From assembly GCA_024998815.1 (NCBI GenBank), contig JACEUQ010000002.1, positions 758,501 through 822,500 on the forward strand: DNA of 64,000 bases, in the 5' to 3' direction. Of the stretch, positions 36,788-63,195 are shown one piece after another; positions within the stretch are counted from its first letter, which is position 1; each line of letters begins with the position of its first letter. The position numbers and the translations under genes were made by a program. This stretch comes from Opitutus sp. GTDB lineage: Bacteria; Verrucomicrobiota; Verrucomicrobiia; Opitutales; Opitutaceae. The notes below the pieces were generated by a model, which worked only from the letters and a program-made list of their open reading frames with translations, was not told the DNA's origin and did not search any database.

Positions 36788-38272
36788 TTAAAGACCGAGG
36801 GCAGCTTCGATAGCCTTCACCGAAGTGCGCAGAATCTGGAGCCGAGCGTGGCGTTTGTCATTCGCGGGAACGAGGTGCCAAGGCGCATCGGTGGTCGCGG
36901 TAAGCGCCAGCATATCGCCGACGGCAATCTCGTAGGCGGCCCATTTATTCCGGTTACGCCAGTCCTCGTCGTTAATTTTATGCTGCTTGTAGGCCGTCTG
37001 CTCGCGCTCACGAAAGCGCCGCAATTGCTCCTCCTGGCTGACGTGCATCCAGAACTTGATCACAATGGTGCCGTGCTCGGTCAATTGGCCCTCAAAGTCG
37101 TTGATCTCGTCGTAGGCCCGGCGCCATTCGGCCTCGCTGCAAAAGCCCTCGAGGCGCTCAACAAGCACCCGCCCGTACCAGGAGCGGTCGTAAATCGAGG
37201 TGAGCCCAGCTCGCGGCAGGTGGCGCCAGAAACGCCACAGGTAGTGATGAGCATTTTCCTCGTCCGTGGGCTTGGCCACGGGAATTACCCGATAATCCTG
37301 GGCATCAATCGCGCTCGTCAGACGCCGAATCGCCCCGCCTTTGCCCGCCGCATCCCAACCTTCGAATACAAAAACGATGGAGCGCTGCGCTTTCTGGGCG
37401 GCGCGGGTAGCGCGGTTGAGGCGACCCAACCACTTCTCGCGCTTGGCCTCGTAGTCTTCCGATGACAATTTCTGGTCCAGCGGCAGAGCAAGCAAACCCG
37501 CCAGTCCATCCGGCCGCAGCGAGACAGGAACACTGGGCGCTGGCACCCGGACCCGGGGCGCATCGAAGCGCTGTAAATGTGCCTCCAGTTGACTCACCAA
37601 AAGGGCGGCGACCTCGAGGTTCCGCTTGCGGGAATCCGCCGCATCGATGACCACCCAAGGGGCTCCGGTGCGGTGGGTTTCCTCGCGTAAACGAGTAGTA
37701 GACTGGGCGATCCGGGCATGGTTGCGATGATGCCGGCGAGCCTCATCGGTCACTCGCCAAGCCGTATCGGGATTGTCGGCCAGTTCGTCGAGGCGCCGGC
37801 GCTGGTCGGACTCGGAAAGGTGGAGCCAGATTTTGATGATGAGCGTGCCGTTATCGGAGAGGAGTTTCTCAAAGGCCCGAATGTGGCCGAGGTGGCGCTC
37901 GATATGCGCAGGCTTGGGTACGTCGCCAGCCTGGGCGCGCAAAAGCTCGGTGTACCATGAGCCGGCAAAAACCCCCAGGCGGCCATACGACGGCAGGCAG
38001 CGCCAAAACCGCCACATCAAGGGGCGCTCGCGCTCCTCGTCGGAGGGTTCACGAAAGGCGACGGTCTCCACCCCGCGCGGGTCGAGCCAGGCGCTCAGGG
38101 TGTTGATCACCTCGCCACGGCCACCGCCTTCCTCGCCAGCGAAAATGAGCAGAACCTTGGTCGGCGCTGCCTTGAGCCGAACCTGCAACTGAACGAGCTT
38201 CTCCCGTAAAGCCGGGACCCGCTCTTCGTAGATTTTTTTAGTCAATCGAGGGGCCGGAATCTCTTGGGTCAT
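36788..38272 (-). CDS. pap: polyphosphate:AMP phosphotransferase (tandem PPK2 domains)
   Basis: A 494-aa two-domain PPK2-class enzyme that phosphorylates AMP to ADP with polyphosphate. The N-terminal domain keeps the fold, but its Walker A is degenerate (IFAGEEGGGRGEVINTL). The C-terminal domain has a full one (FVFEGWDAAGKGGAIRRLT) plus KPTDEENAHHYLWRFWRHLP and the lid IYDRSWYGRVLVERLEGF. One inactive-looking plus one active half is the known class II Pap architecture. Confidence 0.92.
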   Translation of the reverse strand: MTQEIPAPRLTKKIYEERVPALREKLVQLQVRLKAAPTKVLLIFAGEEGGGRGEVINTLSAWLDPRGVETVAFREPSDEERERPLMWRFWRCLPSYGRLGVFAGSWYTELLRAQAGDVPKPAHIERHLGHIRAFEKLLSDNGTLIIKIWLHLSESDQRRRLDELADNPDTAWRVTDEARRHHRNHARIAQSTTRLREETHRTGAPWVVIDAADSRKRNLEVAALLVSQLEAHLQRFDAPRVRVPAPSVPVSLRPDGLAGLLALPLDQKLSSEDYEAKREKWLGRLNRATRAAQKAQRSIVFVFEGWDAAGKGGAIRRLTSAIDAQDYRVIPVAKPTDEENAHHYLWRFWRHLPRAGLTSIYDRSWYGRVLVERLEGFCSEAEWRRAYDEINDFEGQLTEHGTIVIKFWMHVSQEEQLRRFREREQTAYKQHKINDEDWRNRNKWAAYEIAVGDMLALTATTDAPWHLVPANDKRHARLQILRTSVKAIEAALGL

Positions 38273-38394
38273 GAGCCGAGAATAGAGGCTTCGCCCCAGC
38301 AGCGTGTCGAGCCGTGTTTACTATCCGCCGAGGGTTTGGCGGGGGCGTTAAAATACACGCGCGAAAAGTGCTACCAAAACAGCAGAGTTTCCGG

Positions 38395-40319
38395 CACCGC
38401 CGATTCATTGAACAGCTAAACACCTGAATACTAACAAAGGAGCGGAATAAGCGGGACAAGCCCTAGGAAATCATTTTGGCTGGGTGAATGATGCCGGCCG
38501 AAACGAACCCGTCGAACCCCCAAGGGGAGGTGATTTCGCTGCGCCACTTGCAGGTGCAGGTGCTAGACAGCCCCGAGTTAAACGCCCGAGCGCAGGGGCT
38601 GCTTGAGGAGCATCACTATCTGGGCGCGGTGAAACCGGTGGGCGAGCGGCTGCTGTACGCGGTGAGCGATGCGCAGGGCACCTGGGTGGCGGTGCTGGTG
38701 TTTGCGGCGGCGGCGCTGCACCTGCGCGGCCGGGAGGCGTGGATTGGCTGGAGTGGCGAACAGCGCCGACGCCGATTGGCGCTGGTGGTCAACAACGTGC
38801 GGTTCCTGCTGCTGCCCAAGCCGGCGGTGCCCAACTTGGGCTCGGCGGTTTTGAGCCGGGTGCTCGGCCGGCTCAGTGCCGACTGGCAGTCGCGTTACGA
38901 GCACCCCGTGCTCGTCGTGGAAACCTTCGTCGACCCCGAGCGTTTTACGGGAAGTGTATACAAGGCATCCGGGTGGACCGAGTTGGGCCTGACCAAGGGC
39001 AACACGCGTAAGTCGCGCGATTACTACGAGCACCACGCCAAGCCCAAGCGCTTGTTTGTGCGCGAGCTGGAGCCCCGGGCCCGGAGAGCTCTTCAGGCAG
39101 GGCAGATCAAACCCTCGCTGGCTGCGGTGGAGGCGAAAGTTCCGGTGCGAAGTACCCTGAAGGCCCCCGATTTAATCAGCCTGGCGGAGGCCTTCCGGCA
39201 AGTGCCTGAATACCGCGCCTACATCGGGGCCTATCCCTTGCACGCGCTGCTGGCGATCACGGCGGCGGCCTATCTGGCCGGAGCACCCCGCGGCCAACGT
39301 GACCTGGCCGCTTTCGCCCGCCGGCTCTCCCCGGTCCAACGCCAAGCCCTCGGGGTGATCCGCCGCCGCGGCAAATACGGCGCTCCCAGCCAGCCCACCT
39401 TTAGTCGGCTGTTCGCCCGCGTTCAGGCCTCGCGCATCGAGGAGGTTTTACTCGCCCACCAACGTCAGGTGCGAGGCGAGCCCCCCGACAGCGAGATCGT
39501 GGTCATCGACGGCAAAGTCCCCAAGCACAGCGGCGGACAAAACGTCGTGACCGCGGTTACCTCGCCGAGCTTGTTTTATCTCGGCAGCGAGGTCGTCGCC
39601 GAAAAAAGTAACGAGATTCCCGCCGCCCGCGCCCTGTGTGAGAGACTCGATTTGGTCGATAAACTCGTGAGCCTTGATGCCCTGCATACCCAGGCGGACA
39701 CCGCGCGGGCGATCGTACTGGAGCATGGCGGCGACTACCTGTTCACCGTCAAAGGCAATCAGCCCGGCTTGCAGAAAATCGTAGCAGCGCAAGTGCCCGA
39801 TCCGGGCGCCCCTTTTTTGACCCGTTAAAAGATCCCGCTGCCGAGCAACGTACCACCCAGGAAAAGAAGCACCCCGTGACGCGCACCCTGGTGGCGCGCG
39901 AGTTGAGCGCGGAAAGCGCCTGCTTCCCCCTGGTGGCGCAAGCCGCGAGAATCTGCCGAAAACGCCACGGCAAGCCCACCGAGACCGTGGCGCTGATCAC
40001 CAGTCGCCCCGCCGCCGAGTTGACTCCCGCCCAATGGCTGGAGGTCAACATTGCGCACTGGGGAATCGAGACCGGTTTGCATGCCCGCCTCGACGCCTCG
40101 CGCCAGGATGATCGCTGCCGATTACGCCGCCCGAACGCGGTGCGCATCCACGGCATGTTCAACCGCTGGGCCAACAGCCTGTTCATGCACTGGCGCGGTC
40201 AACGAACTAAAAAACGCCACCTTTATACCTCCGACTTTATCGCCCACATGTCCGAAAATCATGACCGTCGCGCGCTCCGCGCACTTACCTCGGTAAACTT
40301 CCCGCTATGAATCGGCGCT
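38395..40319 (+). mobile_element. ISAs1-type element with DruA domain (1925 bp)
   Basis: Flanked by the 10-bp direct repeat GAGTTTCCGG (38385-38394 and 40320-40329), the size expected for the ISAs1 family. The inner end word CGCCGATTCAT (38398-38408) is repeated inverted at 40307-40317, overlapping the transposase stop. The single gene is frameshifted at a T run. Confidence 0.85.
38488..40310 (+). CDS. DruA (DUF4338)-ISAs1 transposase fusion, needs -1 frameshift
   Basis: Frame one runs 38488-39828 (446 aa). Its N-terminal ~200 residues match the DUF4338/DruA domain: LLEEHHYLGAVKPVGERLLY, VPNLGSAVLSRVLGRLSADW, VETFVDPERFTGSVYKASGW. An ISAs1 transposase follows, with YPLHALLAITAAAYLAGA, VVIDGKVPKHSGGQ and LFTVKGNQPGLQKIV. 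The rest (NIAHWGIETGLHARLDASRQDD, FNRWANSLFMHWRG) is in the -1 frame to 40310 with no stop between. The shift coincides with T TTT TTG at 39813-39819. Either programmed -1 slippage or a lost T explains it. Confidence 0.85.
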
Positions 40320-40443
40320 GAGTTTCCGGGACGAAGCCCAAGCAAAGCTTGGCACAGTCACATTTTGCGGATAAAAACTGCGCAGCAATAAGGGAATTTG
40401 GTGCGTGTCACCCGCCCTATTTTCGCCCTAGGTTTTTGCCCGC

Positions 40444-41433
40444 ATGAGCAAACAACCCATTCGCGTCGCCGTGACCGGAGCAGCCGGTCAGATCTCCTAC
40501 TCGCTATTGTTCCGCATCGCCTCCGGCGCGATGTTCGGCCCCGACCAACCGGTCATCCTGCAACTCATCGAGGTGCCTTTTGAAAAGGCCATGAAGGCGC
40601 TTGAAGGCGTCGCCATGGAACTCGACGACTGTGCCTTCCCCCTGCTGCAAAGCATGGTCCTAACCGACGACCCGCGCGTTGGTTTTAAAGACGCCAACTG
40701 GTCACTGCTGGTCGGCGCCAAGCCCCGCGGACCCGGCATGGAGCGCGCCGATCTCCTTAAGGACAACGGCAAGATTTTCATCGGCCAAGGTAAGATCATA
40801 GACGAGGTCGCCGCTGCCGACGCCCGCGTCGCCGTGGTGGGTAACCCCGCCAACACGAACTGTATGATCGCCGCCTCGCAGGCCAAGCGCCTCACCGCCG
40901 ATCGCTTCACCGCCATGGTGCGCCTCGACCAGAACCGCGCCCAGGCCCAGTTGGCCAAGAAGGCCGGCGTCGCCCTCACCGCCGTCAAAGACATCTTCAT
41001 TTACGGTAACCACAGCCCGACCATGTTCCCCGCCTTCGCCCACGCCTCCATCGGCGGTAAGTCGGCCATCGACGTGATCAACGACAAGGAATGGCTCACC
41101 GGCCCGTTCCTTGAGACCGTCGGCAAACGCGGCGCCGCGATCATCGCCGCCCGCGGCCTCTCGTCGGCCGCCTCGGCCGCCAACGCCCTCGTCGACCACG
41201 TGCACAGTCTAGTGACCCCCGGTGCCATCCACTCCGTCGCGGTGAAGTCCGAAGGCCGCTACGGCTTCGACCCCGAAGTCTGGGCCGGTATGCCCGTGCG
41301 CACCACCACGCCCGGCAGCTACGAGGTCATCACCGGTTATGAGATGTGCGAATTCGCCAAGTCGAAGATCGCCCTCACCAACAAAGAGCTGGTCGAAGAG
41401 CGCGCCGCCGTCATCGACATGATCAAGGGCTAA
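40444..41433 (+). CDS. mdh: malate dehydrogenase
   Basis: The NAD-dependent malate dehydrogenase of the TCA cycle (329 aa, the longer cytosolic-type form). The cofactor motif is [19 protein letters not shown]. Substrate residues lie in [17 protein letters not shown] and [12 protein letters not shown], and the catalytic His is in [11 protein letters not shown]. It follows the ISAs1 insertion directly but retains its own leader and has a terminator. It works in the same cycle as sucA-sucB-lpdA. Confidence 0.96.
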
Positions 41434-57774: not shown

Positions 57775-59187
57775 TTACGCAGCGCGGAAGAGTGCTTCAG
57801 CCAAGAAGGGTGGCGCTTTTGATGAGTTCGTGGAGGGAGGGTCGGTCGACGTGAAGTCGGAGAAACTCTCTGGGGCGATCTGGTCGGCCCAGCATTCGCT
57901 GCGCAGGGTGCGCAAGAGGTCCCCCGTGGAACTGGTCGCAGGCGAGGCGCCCGAAGAGTGCGTGCGCCATTTGGGCGGGCGAAGATGCGGCGGCGGATCA
58001 GGGGTTTGCCCCGCAGGATCGCCGAAGAGCAGGGCGGCGATTAACAACAGCGCATAGGCGGCGACGGTGGCGGCGGGTTGGTTGCGGTTGGAGGCGGCGG
58101 TGCGCAGTTGTGCCTGGCCGGTGCCGATCAGGGTTTTCTCATCCCGGAAGTTTCCCTCGATGCCCCAACGCCAGAGGTAATACTGGAGTTGGTCACCCAC
58201 GGGCATATCCGGGTCGGTGCAAACCAAGAAGGCAGGCTGGCGATAGAGCAGCTTCGAGCCTGCGCGCAATCGGTAGCCCACCGGGGCGATCACCATGACT
58301 TGCAACGGGAGCGTCGCCCCGGCTTTACGCCACAGCACCGGCCCGAGGGTCTTGATTTTAAAGGTGTGCTTTTTTCCGGCCGCATAAGCCTCGACGCTTT
58401 GCCAGGCCACGGTGTCGTCGGTGCGCAGCTCTTCCGGGGTCTGGACCGGCGCGCCATAGACCGGCGGGCGACCGGTGGCCGCGGGTGGTCCAGGCAGGGC
58501 GTTGAGCACGGCGTCCCGGCGGATCCGGCCGATATAAACGGTCTTGGCGGGCAGGCCCTTGAGTACGACCGCATTGGTGTAACTGCCATCGCCGGCGACC
58601 ACCAGTTTGCGCGTGTCTGGCAGCGCCTGGCGAAGCTGCTGGATGCGGGCGAGCGCGACGACATTAAGCCGCTGCTGTTTTTTCTTCTCCGTGTACTGCT
58701 GAACCTCGTCGGTAGTGGCTTTTTTACCCGGCTTTGGCGGCGTCGGCGCGTGGGTGAAATCCACCGGAATCATCCGGGCGTGTCCGTCGGAACCAGGCCA
58801 GGCCGCAGAGAGTTGCACATAGCGCTGGCCGCGCACCAGGTTGGTTTGGAACGCGGGGCCGAGCGGATCGCGTTTCCAGCCGACGCCGTCGATCTTGACC
58901 CCGGTTTTGCGTACCAGGGTGTCATCGATGGCGGCCACCAACGGGGTAAGCGCCGGCAGGTTTACCTCAAGCTCATGGAGGACCGTGCGGAAAAGCCCCG
59001 CCGGCTTCACCCGGTCACGCGAATACAACCGGTAGTCGGCCGTCCAGTCCTGCTGGGCACGCCCGCACAGACAAATCAGGTTGGTAAGAGTCCCCCGGCA
59101 CGGTGAAACCAGTGCCGCCATGAGATGCCCCTGCAGTCTCCGGGCGCACTCGGGGGCGGCGCAAGCCGCAGCACAAGCCCGTTTCAT
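57775..59187 (-). CDS. DDE transposase (IS4/IS701-like), copy A
   Basis: A 470-aa transposase. VAAIDDTLVRKTGVKIDGVGWKRDPLG includes the first Asp, VVAGDGSYTNAVVLKGLP the second, and YLWRWGIEGNFRDEKTLIGTGQAQLR the YREK-type segment with the Glu. The start at 59187 (MKRACAAACAAPECA) overlaps the stop of the AbrB-like gene as ATGA, arguing for coupled translation and against the earlier Met at 59217. I cannot name the IS family with certainty. Confidence 0.88.
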   Translation of the reverse strand: MKRACAAACAAPECARRLQGHLMAALVSPCRGTLTNLICLCGRAQQDWTADYRLYSRDRVKPAGLFRTVLHELEVNLPALTPLVAAIDDTLVRKTGVKIDGVGWKRDPLGPAFQTNLVRGQRYVQLSAAWPGSDGHARMIPVDFTHAPTPPKPGKKATTDEVQQYTEKKKQQRLNVVALARIQQLRQALPDTRKLVVAGDGSYTNAVVLKGLPAKTVYIGRIRRDAVLNALPGPPAATGRPPVYGAPVQTPEELRTDDTVAWQSVEAYAAGKKHTFKIKTLGPVLWRKAGATLPLQVMVIAPVGYRLRAGSKLLYRQPAFLVCTDPDMPVGDQLQYYLWRWGIEGNFRDEKTLIGTGQAQLRTAASNRNQPAATVAAYALLLIAALLFGDPAGQTPDPPPHLRPPKWRTHSSGASPATSSTGDLLRTLRSECWADQIAPESFSDFTSTDPPSTNSSKAPPFLAEALFRAA

Positions 59188-59441
59188 AAGTCGTCCCAGC
59201 CGATCGGATAAACCCAACTGGACTTTTTTTTAACGCCTACGTCCACCAGCTCGGGCGTGACCGGCATAACGGGCGCGACCAGACTGCGTGAGAGGACCAA
59301 ATGATGCGCGTCGGTGACGGTCCACTCGACGGCCTCCGACTTGGCGAACCCCATCGTCTGGGCGATGGAAGCGGGTAATGTCACATACCACTGCTCACTG
59401 TTTTTGCGGATGATGCGCTGAACTTTGGTGGTGGTGCTCAT
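59184..59441 (-). CDS. AbrB/SpoVT-like DNA-binding protein of the element, copy A
   Basis: An 85-aa protein: KVQRIIRKNSEQWYVTLPASIAQTMGFAKSEAVEWTVTDAHHLVLSR is a swapped-hairpin AbrB/MazE-type domain. A short tail ends in WVYPIGWDDL. MSTTTKVQR at 59441 is the natural start. It is encoded just upstream of, and overlapping, the transposase, so it probably represses or titrates transposase expression (inference from position and fold). Confidence 0.85.
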   Translation of the reverse strand: MSTTTKVQRIIRKNSEQWYVTLPASIAQTMGFAKSEAVEWTVTDAHHLVLSRSLVAPVMPVTPELVDVGVKKKSSWVYPIGWDDL

Positions 59442-59544
59442 GGTCCGACACCATCGTTCATGGCCACGCTTTTTCCCATGGGCCCGACGCCCCATTTATC
59501 TCTACGGCCTTCTCCGGGCCAACTAGTCAGAGGCCAAACTCCAG

Positions 59545-59561
59545 GGCCGCCTTCGGCGGCA
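59545..59561. repeat. 17-bp hairpin direct repeat, copy 2
   Basis: GGCCGCCTTCGGCGGCA, exactly filling the gap between the end of copy A and the start of copy B. Confidence 0.95.
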
Positions 59562-59611
59562 CTGGAGTTTGGCCCCAAAAGCAGGTGGATGCGAAGCGGC
59601 CGGAGGCCCGG

Positions 59612-61024
59612 TTACGCAGCGCGGAAGAGTGCTTCAGCCAAGAAGGGTGGCGCTTTTGATGAGTTCGTGGAGGGAGGGTCGGTCGACGTGAAGTCGGAGA
59701 AACTCTCTGGGGCGATCTGGTCGGCCCAGCATTCGCTGCGCAGGGTGCGCAAGAGGTCCCCCGTGGAACTGGTCGCAGGCGAGGCGCCCGAAGAGTGCGT
59801 GCGCCATTTGGGCGGGCGAAGATGCGGCGGCGGATCAGGGGTTTGCCCCGCAGGATCGCCGAAGAGCAGGGCGGCGATTAACAACAGCGCATAGGCGGCG
59901 ACGGTGGCGGCGGGTTGGTTGCGGTTGGAGGCGGCGGTGCGCAGTTGTGCCTGGCCGGTGCCGATCAGGGTTTTCTCATCCCGGAAGTTTCCCTCGATGC
60001 CCCAACGCCAGAGGTAATACTGGAGTTGGTCACCCACGGGCATATCCGGGTCGGTGCAAACCAAGAAGGCAGGCTGGCGATAGAGCAGCTTCGAGCCTGC
60101 GCGCAATCGGTAGCCCACCGGGGCGATCACCATGACTTGCAACGGGAGCGTCGCCCCGGCTTTACGCCACAGCACCGGCCCGAGGGTCTTGATTTTAAAG
60201 GTGTGCTTTTTTCCGGCCGCATAAGCCTCGACGCTTTGCCAGGCCACGGTGTCGTCGGTGCGCAGCTCTTCCGGGGTCTGGACCGGCGCGCCATAGACCG
60301 GCGGGCGACCGGTGGCCGCGGGTGGTCCAGGCAGGGCGTTGAGCACGGCGTCCCGGCGGATCCGGCCGATATAAACGGTCTTGGCGGGCAGGCCCTTGAG
60401 TACGACCGCATTGGTGTAACTGCCATCGCCGGCGACCACCAGTTTGCGCGTGTCTGGCAGCGCCTGGCGAAGCTGCTGGATGCGGGCGAGCGCGACGACA
60501 TTAAGCCGCTGCTGTTTTTTCTTCTCCGTGTACTGCTGAACCTCGTCGGTAGTGGCTTTTTTACCCGGCTTTGGCGGCGTCGGCGCGTGGGTGAAATCCA
60601 CCGGAATCATCCGGGCGTGTCCGTCGGAACCAGGCCAGGCCGCAGAGAGTTGCACATAGCGCTGGCCGCGCACCAGGTTGGTTTGGAACGCGGGGCCGAG
60701 CGGATCGCGTTTCCAGCCGACGCCGTCGATCTTGACCCCGGTTTTGCGTACCAGGGTGTCATCGATGGCGGCCACCAACGGGGTAAGCGCCGGCAGGTTT
60801 ACCTCAAGCTCATGGAGGACCGTGCGGAAAAGCCCCGCCGGCTTCACCCGGTCACGCGAATACAACCGGTAGTCGGCCGTCCAGTCCTGCTGGGCACGCC
60901 CGCACAGACAAATCAGGTTGGTAAGAGTCCCCCGGCACGGTGAAACCAGTGCCGCCATGAGATGCCCCTGCAGTCTCCGGGCGCACTCGGGGGCGGCGCA
61001 AGCCGCAGCACAAGCCCGTTTCAT
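59612..61024 (-). CDS. DDE transposase (IS4/IS701-like), copy B
   Basis: Translation identical to copy A (470 aa), with the same ATGA overlap with its AbrB-like gene. Both copies look intact. Confidence 0.88.
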   Translation of the reverse strand: MKRACAAACAAPECARRLQGHLMAALVSPCRGTLTNLICLCGRAQQDWTADYRLYSRDRVKPAGLFRTVLHELEVNLPALTPLVAAIDDTLVRKTGVKIDGVGWKRDPLGPAFQTNLVRGQRYVQLSAAWPGSDGHARMIPVDFTHAPTPPKPGKKATTDEVQQYTEKKKQQRLNVVALARIQQLRQALPDTRKLVVAGDGSYTNAVVLKGLPAKTVYIGRIRRDAVLNALPGPPAATGRPPVYGAPVQTPEELRTDDTVAWQSVEAYAAGKKHTFKIKTLGPVLWRKAGATLPLQVMVIAPVGYRLRAGSKLLYRQPAFLVCTDPDMPVGDQLQYYLWRWGIEGNFRDEKTLIGTGQAQLRTAASNRNQPAATVAAYALLLIAALLFGDPAGQTPDPPPHLRPPKWRTHSSGASPATSSTGDLLRTLRSECWADQIAPESFSDFTSTDPPSTNSSKAPPFLAEALFRAA

Positions 61025-61278
61025 AAGTCGTCCCAGCCGATCGGATAAACCCAACTGGACTTTTTTTTAACGCCTACGTCCACCAGCTCGGGCGTGACCG
61101 GCATAACGGGCGCGACCAGACTGCGTGAGAGGACCAAATGATGCGCGTCGGTGACGGTCCACTCGACGGCCTCCGACTTGGCGAACCCCATCGTCTGGGC
61201 GATGGAAGCGGGTAATGTCACATACCACTGCTCACTGTTTTTGCGGATGATGCGCTGAACTTTGGTGGTGGTGCTCAT
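61021..61278 (-). CDS. AbrB/SpoVT-like DNA-binding protein of the element, copy B
   Basis: Identical in translation to the copy at 59184-59441 (85 aa). Confidence 0.85.
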   Translation of the reverse strand: MSTTTKVQRIIRKNSEQWYVTLPASIAQTMGFAKSEAVEWTVTDAHHLVLSRSLVAPVMPVTPELVDVGVKKKSSWVYPIGWDDL

Positions 61279-61381
61279 GGTCCGACACCATCGTTCATGG
61301 CCACGCTTTTTCCCATGGGCCCGACGCCCCATTTATCTCTACGGCCTTCTCCGGGCCAACTAGTCAGAGGCCAAACTCCAG

Positions 61382-61625
61382 ACCTTGAGCTCACGCTCAA
61401 GGCCACGTTCGGGCGGGTGCGGCCTGGAGTGTGCCTTTGCCTGGGTGGCTTTGGCTCGGTGTGGCTTCGTGCGTGAGCACGAGGTGTTTTTTCTGGCTGC
61501 GGTGCGCCGAATCCTTGAGCTCACGCTCAAGGCCACAAGGAGTGTGTTCGCGAAGAGTGTGGCCTTGAGCGTGAGCTCAAGGATTCGGCTGATCTGCGTT
61601 CGACTAGTCAGGGGCCAAACTCCAG
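61382..61625. repeat. 244-bp block with nested R1 arms, copy 2
   Basis: Same as 18207-18450. It starts directly after the GGCCAAACTCCAG end of copy B and finishes with another GGCCAAACTCCAG, then the third 17-bp hairpin. It may be a tail acquired by some members of the element family. Confidence 0.85.
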
Positions 61626-61642
61626 GGCCGCCTTCGGCGGCA
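61626..61642. repeat. 17-bp hairpin direct repeat, copy 3
   Basis: GGCCGCCTTCGGCGGCA, the right boundary of the whole 57725-61625 insertion. Confidence 0.95.
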
Positions 61643-61831
61643 GTCAGTGCGGGGAGGGAGCCAAGCTCCCTCCCCTGCACCCCTCCCTATATTTTCTTAT
61701 TGAGACGGAAGAAGATCAATCGGGTGGGGAGGAGCGGACTCCTCCCCTACACCCCCTCCTCCCTTCGGCTTACGTGTGTCGAAGTCTGATTGTCGTCAGT
61801 GTCGAAATCAGATTGTCGTTGAACACTGCGC
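61643..61831. other. GC hairpins and an IS21-type end
   Basis: Two related hairpins (GGGAGGGAGCCAAGCTCCCT and, 80 bases on, GGGGAGGAGCGGACTCCTCC) precede TGTGTCGAAGTCTGATTGTC at 61775. With its following GTGTCGAAATCAGATTGTCG, this resembles an IS21 left end. No istA 5' region follows it directly. Confidence 0.55.
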
Positions 61832-62104
61832 ATGCAAATTCGCAGCAAGCTCAGCGCCCTGTTTGAATCGAGAGAAAATCGCACTCTGCGACGCGAAACA
61901 GACTTGGCTAAGGACGAATCTGAAGAAAGTTTTGCCAATTCGGTTTTTGATTCCGACGCCCTGTTCAGGGATAAAACTGAGAAGATCGAACACGAATCTC
62001 GGTCGGCTATGGCCGAGCGAATTGATCGTTTCTTGGACTTCGTTGCCGATGACCCTCTTGTCCATGCCATGATCATTCTAGTGCTTACTTGCAATAATAA
62101 GTGA
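61832..62104 (+). pseudogene. small hypothetical gene truncated by IS630 (90 aa)
   Basis: MQIRSKLSALFESRENRTLRRETDLAKDESEESFANSVFDSDALFR and so on: a charged, non-GC-skewed composition that looks like a real soluble protein, unlike the shadow frame on the other strand. The IS630 element begins at 62081, so the last residues (LTCNNK) are transposon-encoded. Function unknown. It may itself be a fragment. Confidence 0.5.
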
Positions 62105-63195
62105 TATTGTATCCGCTTTGTAGATGGGACGAAAAGCCGTGCGAATCACTTGTAGCGAGGGGGATCAGCAATCCCTAGAAAAACGGGCAACCAGCCGGAT
62201 TGAGTCGAGGCAGCGAGTTGAGCGCGCCCGGATGATCCTTGGGTGCGTGAGTGGCGAGCAGGTGCAAGAGGTGGCGCGCCGCTGCAACACCAGGCCGAAC
62301 ACCGTAATAAAGTGGAGGGATCGCTTTGTGCTGCTTGGCATGAAGGGGCTGGATGATGCGGCACGGCCGGGCGCGAAGCGCACCTACGGTGAGGACTTTC
62401 GAGATCGGGTGCTGGCTTTATTGGAAGGGCCACCCCCTCCGGGGCAGGCGCGCTGGGATGGTCCAGCGGTGGCCCGTGTGCTCGGCGGCTCGGTGCACGC
62501 GGTCTGGCGAGTGCTGCGCAAGGAGGGCATTTGCCTGCAGCGCCAGCGCTCGTGGTGCGTGAGCACTGACAAGCAGTTCGCAGCCAAGGCAGCCGATATC
62601 GTCGGGCTCTACCTGAGCCCACCGGAAAAGGCATTGGTGATAAGTGTGGATGAAAAGCCTGGCATCCAAGCCCTAGAGCGCGCCACCGGTTACGTGGAGA
62701 CCGACAATGGTAAAATCGTCCAGGGACTCAAAAGCACCTACAAGCGCCACGGTACACTCAACTTGTTCGCTGCCCTTGATGTGGCCACGGGCTTGATCAA
62801 GACGCAGAAAACCACCCTTAAGCGCCGGGAGGAGTTCCTGCTGTTCATGGACCAAGTGGTGGCGGATCACCCGCCCGAGAGAGAACTCCACGTGATTTTG
62901 GATAATTATTGCACCCACAAAAAGTGCGACGCTTGGCTCGCTCGGCACCCCAATGTCCACTTCCACTTTACCCCAACCTCGGCGAGTTGGCTCAATCAAG
63001 TTGAAATCTGGTTCGGCATACTAACAAGGAAGGCGCTACGGGGCGCGAACTTCAGAAGCGTCGCCGAACTTAGTCAGGCCATTGACGCTTTCGTCGCCGC
63101 CTACCTGCCCAATGCCAAGCCGTTCAAGTGGCGCAAGCGCGAGGTCAAGGGAAGCCAACTCAGAAATACTATCATTAATCTACGCAATTAAGCAC
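62081..63195 (+). mobile_element. IS630-family insertion sequence (1115 bp)
   Basis: Inverted ends GTGCTTACTTGCAATAATAA and, read inward from the right, GTGCTTAATTGCGTAGATTA (imperfect). Flanked by TA on each side (62079-62080 and 63196-63197), the standard IS630 target. Confidence 0.9.
62124..63191 (+). CDS. IS630 family transposase
   Basis: A 355-aa transposase. The N-terminal double helix-turn-helix has VQEVARRCNTRPNTVIKWRDRF and a winged-helix part. The catalytic triad lies in LVISVDEKPGIQALER, HVILDNYCTHK and FTPTSASWLNQVEIWFGIL (D, D, E). Single intact frame, so the element may be active. Confidence 0.95.
   Translation: MGRKAVRITCSEGDQQSLEKRATSRIESRQRVERARMILGCVSGEQVQEVARRCNTRPNTVIKWRDRFVLLGMKGLDDAARPGAKRTYGEDFRDRVLALLEGPPPPGQARWDGPAVARVLGGSVHAVWRVLRKEGICLQRQRSWCVSTDKQFAAKAADIVGLYLSPPEKALVISVDEKPGIQALERATGYVETDNGKIVQGLKSTYKRHGTLNLFAALDVATGLIKTQKTTLKRREEFLLFMDQVVADHPPERELHVILDNYCTHKKCDAWLARHPNVHFHFTPTSASWLNQVEIWFGILTRKALRGANFRSVAELSQAIDAFVAAYLPNAKPFKWRKREVKGSQLRNTIINLRN

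What the first reader, a model, noticed from the sequence alone, without database searches (positions are those of the whole stretch)
38488..39100. DruA (Druantia) domain fused to a transposase
The N-terminal ~200 residues match DUF4338, the domain of the Druantia anti-phage protein DruA, and are continuous with an ISAs1 transposase core. Either the defence protein derives from a transposon-encoded DNA-recognition module or transposons borrow it. The element has a clean 10-bp target duplication, so the fusion is carried by a genuinely mobile unit.
Basis: partly seen in the sequence, partly recalled or inferred. Interest (0 to 1): 0.72.

Follow-up and report, generated by a model that had tools for sequence, protein, structure and literature searches.

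The report
Mom-like DruA domain in frameshifted transposases
A jumping gene present in about 20 copies in this genome makes a transposase with a built-in relative of a phage DNA-modifying enzyme (Mom), and it needs a deliberate reading-frame slip to make the active enzyme; this suggests that the "DruA" domain known from phage defence mostly belongs to mobile DNA.

Summary
The fusion is real. Window 38395-40320 is a complete 1926-bp IS element. Its ORF1 carries a DruA domain (PF14236, 92 bits) joined to an ISAs1 transposase. Fifteen full-length copies (97.5-100% identical) lie in this genome. The target duplication is 9 bp, not 10.

ORF1 stops between the second and third catalytic residues of the DDE transposase. 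The Glu lies in the -1 frame, after CCCCTTTTTTG. All 15 copies share this split, and the downstream frame is under purifying selection. Elements across many phyla break at about the same place at homopolymer tracts (CnTn needs -1, TnCn needs +1). ISAs1 elements without DruA are single ORFs. This looks like programmed recoding, probably transcriptional slippage.

The DruA domain is predicted to be a GNAT fold whose closest solved relative is phage Mu Mom, a DNA-modifying enzyme. Its serine aligned with Mom's inactivation site, and its His and Asp, are nearly invariant in transposon DruAs but appear replaced in true Druantia DruA.

DruA also occurs fused to IS4 and IS701 transposases and beside IS66 transposases. 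The ISAs1 fusions form one clade that excludes Druantia DruA. So DruA looks like a recurrent mobile-element GNAT domain. Its catalytic role is inferred, not shown.

The parts
38386..38394 (.). left 9-bp target-site duplication AGTTTCCGG
   Evidence: identical to 40321-40329
38395..38408 (+). left terminal inverted repeat CACCGCCGATTCAT; start of the 1926-bp element
38488..39828 (+). ORF1, 446 aa: DruA domain + ISAs1 transposase up to and including the first two catalytic Asp; stops in frame 0
38536..39102 (+). DruA / Mom-like GNAT domain (aa 17-205)
   Evidence: PF14236; AlphaFold2 pLDDT 91.8; Mom 8bv8 Z 15.2
38614..38616 (+). codon of His43 (aligned with Mom His48 in 231-aa numbering; 100 of 101 ISAs1 fusions)
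38842..38844 (+). codon of Ser119, aligned with the Mom serine mutated in the inactive S124A structure
38932..38934 (+). codon of Asp149, aligned with Mom Asp139 (231-aa numbering)
39250..39795 (+). ISAs1 transposase core, first part (NF033564 positions 2-182)
39508..39510 (+). first catalytic Asp (DGK motif, aa 341), assigned by family resemblance
   Evidence: alignment
39676..39678 (+). second catalytic Asp (DALH motif, aa 397), assigned by family resemblance
   Evidence: alignment
39795..39807 (+). hairpin GCCCG-ATC-CGGGC just 5' of the slip tract (-8.5 kcal/mol in the 24-nt window)
39809..39818 (+). slip tract CCCCTTTTTT (frame 0: GCC CCT TTT TTG), -1 shift needed
39819..40310 (+). -1 frame continuation: C-terminal part of the transposase
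40068..40070 (+). catalytic Glu codon (HWGIE motif), in the -1 frame; assigned by family resemblance
   Evidence: alignment
40307..40320 (-). right terminal inverted repeat ATGAATCGGCGCTG; end of the element
40321..40329 (.). right 9-bp target-site duplication AGTTTCCGG

Best explanation
This is an active insertion sequence from a clade of ISAs1 transposons whose transposase acquired, once, an N-terminal Mom-like GNAT (DruA) domain. Ordinary decoding makes the 446-aa ORF1 product: an intact DruA domain plus a transposase without its catalytic Glu. That product probably can bind ends but cannot cut, so it is a likely inhibitor. A programmed slip at CCCCTTTTTTG, most likely insertion of one extra nucleotide by RNA polymerase helped by the hairpin just upstream, puts a minority of products into the -1 frame and yields the full DruA-DDE transposase. 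The DruA domain most likely acyl-modifies DNA, by analogy with Mom, at the transposon or target bound by the same protein. Shown: the fusion, the split frame, its conservation and selection, multi-copy mobility, the predicted GNAT fold and retention of Mom-equivalent residues. Inferred: transcriptional rather than ribosomal slippage, an inhibitor role for ORF1, and DNA modification as the domain's activity.
For: Fusion. Mobility: 15 full-length copies with no gaps; 9- or 10-bp duplications in 10 copies, and two more (L002, L009) with exchanged flanks. No in-frame ISAs1 copy was found in the genome that could act in trans. After the slip tract, changes among the 15 copies are synonymous in the -1 frame (30 of 49, 26% expected, p 3e-7) but not in frame 0 (p 0.74) or +1 (p 1.0). 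Frame split across DruA-ISAs1 loci. Tract order and shift direction agree in 45 of 49 distinct sites. An upstream hairpin is enriched: TnCn mean -7.7 vs -3.8 control, p 6e-5; CnTn -5.5 vs -3.6, p 0.009; nothing downstream. Frame-split relatives elsewhere have inverted repeats and 9-10 bp duplications (L038, L041, L170, L197). Ten of ten intact non-DruA ISAs1 loci are in frame. One fusion origin fits both trees. Mom-like fold; Mom HMM matches 37 of 58 members, best 2.4e-8; Ser, His and Asp retained. DruA dN/dS 0.08-0.22. Published: C_CC.U_UU.N are strong -1 heptamers (PMC4066793); T5C5 with a 5' hairpin drives slippage in a Roseiflexus IS630 (PMC5009743); both-direction frameshift clusters exist in DDE_Tnp_1 transposases (PMC3711429); Mom domains are fused to nucleases in jumbo phages (PMC7824862).
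Against: No experiment shows slippage, transposition or DNA modification. The tract-order/direction link rests on only about two independent switches on the tree, so the pooled p-value (1.5e-9) overstates it. For the window's own site a ribosomal -1 slip at C_CCU_UUU or U_UUU_UUG is equally possible. Some members (Proteobacteria; L042 in Verrucomicrobiota) are in frame, so recoding is not essential to the architecture. Mom similarity is remote (19% identity in the structural alignment), and a GNAT fold could acylate protein or be non-catalytic.
Confidence: 0.6

Rival explanations
1. The frame split is programmed -1 ribosomal frameshifting (as in IS1/IS3), at C_CCU_UUU or U_UUU_UUG, not transcriptional slippage.
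For: The window tract in register GCC CCT TTT TTG fits X_XXZ_ZZN, and C_CC.U_UU.U/G/A are high-efficiency heptamers in E. coli (PMC4066793). One group uses CAAAAAAAG, which contains the classic A_AAA_AAG.
Against: In relatives the C-to-T boundary sits in different codon phases (GCC CCT TTT TTG, ACC CCC TTT TTG, ACC CCC CTT TTG), while only the first fits tandem re-pairing. Many relatives need +1 at TnCn; a 2016 review states that no IS using +1 ribosomal frameshifting had been identified (PMC5009743). The structure signal is 5' of the tract, none 3'.
Confidence: 0.3
2. The split is inactivating decay or sequencing error, and transposition was driven by an in-frame copy in trans.
For: L018 and L019 carry additional frame breaks, so decayed copies exist.
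Against: All 15 full-length copies share the split, no in-frame copy was found, the -1 frame downstream is under purifying selection, and unrelated genomes break at the same place.
Confidence: 0.04
3. The DruA domain is a non-catalytic DNA-binding module that recognises the terminal repeats.
For: It sits N-terminal, where transposases often have DNA-binding domains (established knowledge of transposases; no tool result here supports end binding).
Against: The predicted fold is GNAT with Mom-equivalent active-site positions nearly invariant. The transposases already have DNA-binding regions. The same domain is used with transposases of unrelated families and as a separate protein beside IS66.
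Confidence: 0.15
4. The DruA domain is a GNAT acyltransferase that modifies a protein (transposase or host factor) rather than DNA.
For: Most of the structural matches are protein or small-molecule acetyltransferases.
Against: Mom is the best match by a clear margin (Z 15.2 vs 12.9) and has sequence-profile support.
Confidence: 0.2

Closest known systems
ISAs1 family insertion sequences (NF033564)
   Same: same DDE transposase core, inverted repeats beginning CA, 9-10 bp target duplication
   Different: extra N-terminal DruA domain; element 1.9 kb; transposase split over two frames, whereas the intact DruA-less ISAs1 elements examined are single ORFs
Druantia DruA (type I Druantia defence)
   Same: same Pfam family PF14236; shared GxxxR...RD.WIGW region
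   Different: true DruA (from druA...druE loci on Nitrosococcus and P. putida plasmids, and beside a large helicase gene in Meiothermus) is about 410 aa, on a long separate branch, and has W/S/G/S where transposon DruAs have H/Y/S/D
Phage Mu Mom (PF25680, PDB 8bv8)
   Same: GNAT fold, His-Tyr, Ser, Asp at aligned positions
   Different: not fused to a transposase in Mu; only remote sequence similarity; activity untested here
Roseiflexus IS630 element with T5C5 transcriptional slippage (PMC5009743)
   Same: hairpin directly 5' of a T/C tract; several +1 relatives here have exactly TTTTTCCCCC
   Different: different transposase family; the window element has the reverse order CnTn and needs -1
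IS1/IS3 frameshifting elements
   Same: truncated product plus trans-frame transposase
   Different: here the truncated product already contains two of the three catalytic residues and a GNAT domain

Membership tests
DruA domain family (PF14236) | Pfam score above the gathering cut-off | tested here: met
   92.1 bits vs 27
ISAs1 insertion sequences | transposase matches NF033564 above cut-off | tested here: met
   98 bits vs 70 for the first part; second part 30 bits in the other frame
ISAs1 insertion sequences | terminal inverted repeats and 8-10 bp target duplication | tested here: met
   14-bp repeats, 9-bp duplication
ISAs1 insertion sequences | single-ORF transposase, as in the intact DruA-less members examined | tested here: not met
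   hence filed as a variant subgroup, not a standard member
Druantia defence system | druA next to druE helicase and partner genes | tested here: not met
   element lies alone between unrelated genes; true loci have DEAD/DEAH helicase genes
Druantia defence system | match to the PADLOC DruA model | tested here: inconclusive
   E 0.041, 11 bits
Mom family (PF25680) | Pfam score above cut-off | tested here: not met
   window 17.4 bits vs 27.1; relatives reach 2.4e-8. So 'Mom-like', not a member
Mom family (PF25680) | GNAT fold with the serine that is mutated in the inactive structure | tested here: met
   predicted fold Z 15.2; Ser119 aligned
Mom family (PF25680) | acyl modification of adenine in DNA | not testable with these tools
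   needs biochemistry
Programmed recoding of IS transposases | conserved slip tract in the ORF overlap and selection on the trans-frame ORF | tested here: met
Programmed recoding of IS transposases | fusion product detected | not testable with these tools
   needs RNA sequencing or proteomics

The most novel reading that the evidence does not exclude
DruA-bearing insertion sequences are self-marking transposons: a Mom-like enzyme tethered to the transposase (ISAs1, IS4, IS701) or encoded beside it (IS66) modifies adenines on the transposon or target DNA, for example to protect the moving DNA from restriction. Druantia defence recruited a version of this domain that lost the Mom-type catalytic residues. 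Defence DruA would thus be a domesticated transposon accessory domain.
Probability: 0.3. Interest if true: 0.85.

Novelty: new variant of a known kind. Interest (0 to 1): 0.62.

Why it matters
DruA has been viewed mainly as a defence gene of unknown activity. Most of its relatives found here are tied to transposases of several families, it looks like the phage Mu DNA-modifier Mom, and the transposon forms keep the Mom residues that Druantia DruA has lost. That gives a concrete, testable activity and a possible origin. Automatic annotation of DUF4338 proteins as 'Druantia' may often mislabel transposon proteins. The natural set of slip sites (CnTn, TnCn, A-runs; -1 and +1) in one transposase clade is also a good system for studying how slippage direction is encoded.

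Tried and rejected
One alignment failed on guessed coordinates. A DruA match in a 1827-aa frame at C2:572504 proved to be a stretch of masked N. Phage collection: no tblastn match to the domain. PDB sequence search with the DruA profile: no meaningful match, so the fold link comes from the AlphaFold2 model. I tested on the tree whether the sites linking tract order with shift direction are independent: only two independent pairs, so I do not rely on the Fisher p-value. L078/L084 were first counted as a third recoding class, but they are relatives of an in-frame element and look decayed. A literature search for a DruA-Mom link: none of the papers listed held DruA together with GNAT or Mom; one paper calls DUF4338 a GNAT domain (PMC10853773). 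The second structure job was not used.

Full report
WHAT IS THERE. The window holds one complete insertion sequence at 38395-40320 (1926 bp), with 14-bp imperfect inverted repeats (CACCGCCGATTCAT / CAGCGCCGATTCAT) and a 9-bp target duplication AGTTTCCGG. The same genome has 15 full-length copies, 97.5-100% identical and without gaps, plus interrupted or diverged ones. Nine copies have a perfect 9-bp duplication and one a 10-bp one; two more (L002, L009) have exchanged flanks.

THE FUSION. ORF1 (38488-39828, 446 aa) scores 92.1 bits to Pfam DruA and 98 bits to the ISAs1 transposase model.

THE MISSED FEATURE: A SPLIT FRAME. ORF1 ends after the second catalytic Asp. The rest of the transposase, with the HWGIE glutamate, is in the -1 frame from 39819 to 40310. 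The catalytic residues are assigned by resemblance to the DDE family, not by experiment. Every full-length copy has the same tract, C4T6G, with two bases changed upstream in L011. Changes among the 15 copies in the downstream region are synonymous in the -1 frame (30 of 49; 26% expected; p 3e-7) but not in the other two frames. No in-frame ISAs1 copy was found in the genome. The split is therefore most likely functional.

RELATIVES. A scan of 84,980 species' genomes for the DruA domain gave 80 loci from Verrucomicrobiota, Kiritimatiellota, Acidobacteriota, Pseudomonadota, Bacillota, Planctomycetota and others. Most are DruA-ISAs1 fusions, and most of those are split between the second Asp and the Glu. 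Two main tract types occur. CnTn tracts need -1 (26 of 29 distinct sites) and TnCn tracts need +1 (19 of 20). Several TnCn tracts are exactly TTTTTCCCCC. A third group is split between the two Asp codons at CAAAAAAAG, which contains A_AAA_AAG. Some, mostly proteobacterial, are in frame. Tract order switched only about twice on the tree, so the pooled Fisher p (1.5e-9) must not be read as independent evidence. Relatives with split frames also have inverted repeats and 9-10 bp duplications (L038, L041, L170, L197). In contrast, ten of ten intact Verrucomicrobiota ISAs1 loci without DruA are in frame. On the transposase tree the DruA-less elements (with L156, which the script had labelled as fused) lie together on a branch with support 99.

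HOW THE SLIP PROBABLY WORKS. I favour transcriptional slippage for four reasons. The tract varies in codon phase. Both shift directions occur in one clade, which a genome-wide study took as a sign of transcriptional realignment in transposases (PMC3711429). A hairpin lies directly 5' of the tract: in the window GCCCG-ATC-CGGGC, and significantly in the TnCn class, with nothing downstream. The same arrangement (T5C5 after a hairpin) is an established slippage signal in a Roseiflexus IS630 element (PMC5009743). A simple physical rule would explain direction: in CnTn a backward slip, and in TnCn a forward slip, each place rU opposite template dG, a tolerated wobble, giving one base gained or lost. 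This rule is my inference. For the window itself ribosomal -1 slippage at C_CCU_UUU, a strong heptamer in E. coli (PMC4066793), is not excluded.

WHAT THE DRUA DOMAIN IS. AlphaFold2 on 58 relatives gave a confident model (pLDDT 91.8). Its best solved match is phage Mu Mom (8bv8, Z 15.2, 170 residues, 19% identity), ahead of all other GNAT enzymes (12.9 and below). Mom's Pfam profile matches 37 of 58 members, best E 2.4e-8, but the window itself only reaches 17.4 bits, under the cut-off. A profile alignment to Mu Mom (E 2.5e-4) pairs Mom His48-Tyr49, Ser114 and Asp139 (231-aa numbering) with window His43-Tyr44, Ser119 and Asp149. Ser114 is the residue replaced by Ala in the structure titled 'inactive mutant S124A'. 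In ISAs1 fusions these residues are present in 100/101 (His), 94/101 (Tyr), 100/103 (Ser) and 99/101 (Asp); in three true Druantia DruA proteins the aligned residues are W, S, G, S (the C-terminal half of that alignment is uncertain). A published analysis already calls DUF4338 a GNAT domain (PMC10853773), and Mom domains fused to nucleases are described in jumbo phages (PMC7824862). The domain is under purifying selection (dN/dS 0.08-0.22 between relatives).

WHERE ELSE IT OCCURS. In Verrucomicrobiota genomes the same domain is N-terminal to IS4/Tn5-type transposases (735-807 aa, single ORF) and to an IS701 transposase. A stand-alone form of about 300 aa lies directly upstream of, often overlapping, IS66 transposase genes (six loci) and one weakly IS1380-like gene. 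The tree puts all ISAs1 fusions in one clade (SH-aLRT 95) and Druantia DruA on a long separate branch. The root was placed by choice, so whether defence DruA came from transposons or the reverse is not settled. The number of transposase families involved favours mobile DNA as the main home.

LIKELY WORKING MODEL. Most translation gives a 446-aa protein with an intact Mom-like domain and a transposase lacking its Glu, a plausible inhibitor. Rare slippage gives the active enzyme. The DruA domain may modify DNA near the bound ends or target. These last points are inference; the tests are listed under decisive next steps.

Noticed in passing
L002 and L009 (G000 C3 773666 and 37879): Two oppositely oriented copies have exchanged flanks (each left duplication matches the other's right), as expected from an inversion of about 736 kb by recombination between them, or from an assembly join.
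   Followed up: partly
window 40320-40444: The element sits about 124 bp upstream of an ORF at 40444-41433 that resembles malate dehydrogenase, facing the same way; on the other side is an ORF resembling a polyphosphate kinase 2 (36788-38272, minus strand). Insertion may affect their promoters. Names are by eye, not tested.
   Followed up: no
L027 (G000 C1 about 58700-62200): One copy of the element is interrupted between DruA and the transposase part by another transposase gene.
   Followed up: partly
L200 (G326 C127 47500-53500): A 1220-aa ORF joins a DruA-like region to a P-loop NTPase-like region next to another ORF; may be a defence system related to the DndF fusions described in the literature.
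   Followed up: no
BFVD matches of the model: Several phage proteins annotated as homing endonucleases or endonuclease-like (about 500 aa) contain a fold like this domain, so Mom/DruA-like GNATs may be accessory parts of other mobile DNA enzymes.
   Followed up: no
L227 (Candidatus Thiodictyon plasmid pTs417): A DruA-ISAs1 fusion annotated as 'ISAs1 family transposase' is followed by a 131-aa 'hypothetical protein' at the place of the split C-terminal part: annotation has probably cut a recoded gene in two.
   Followed up: partly
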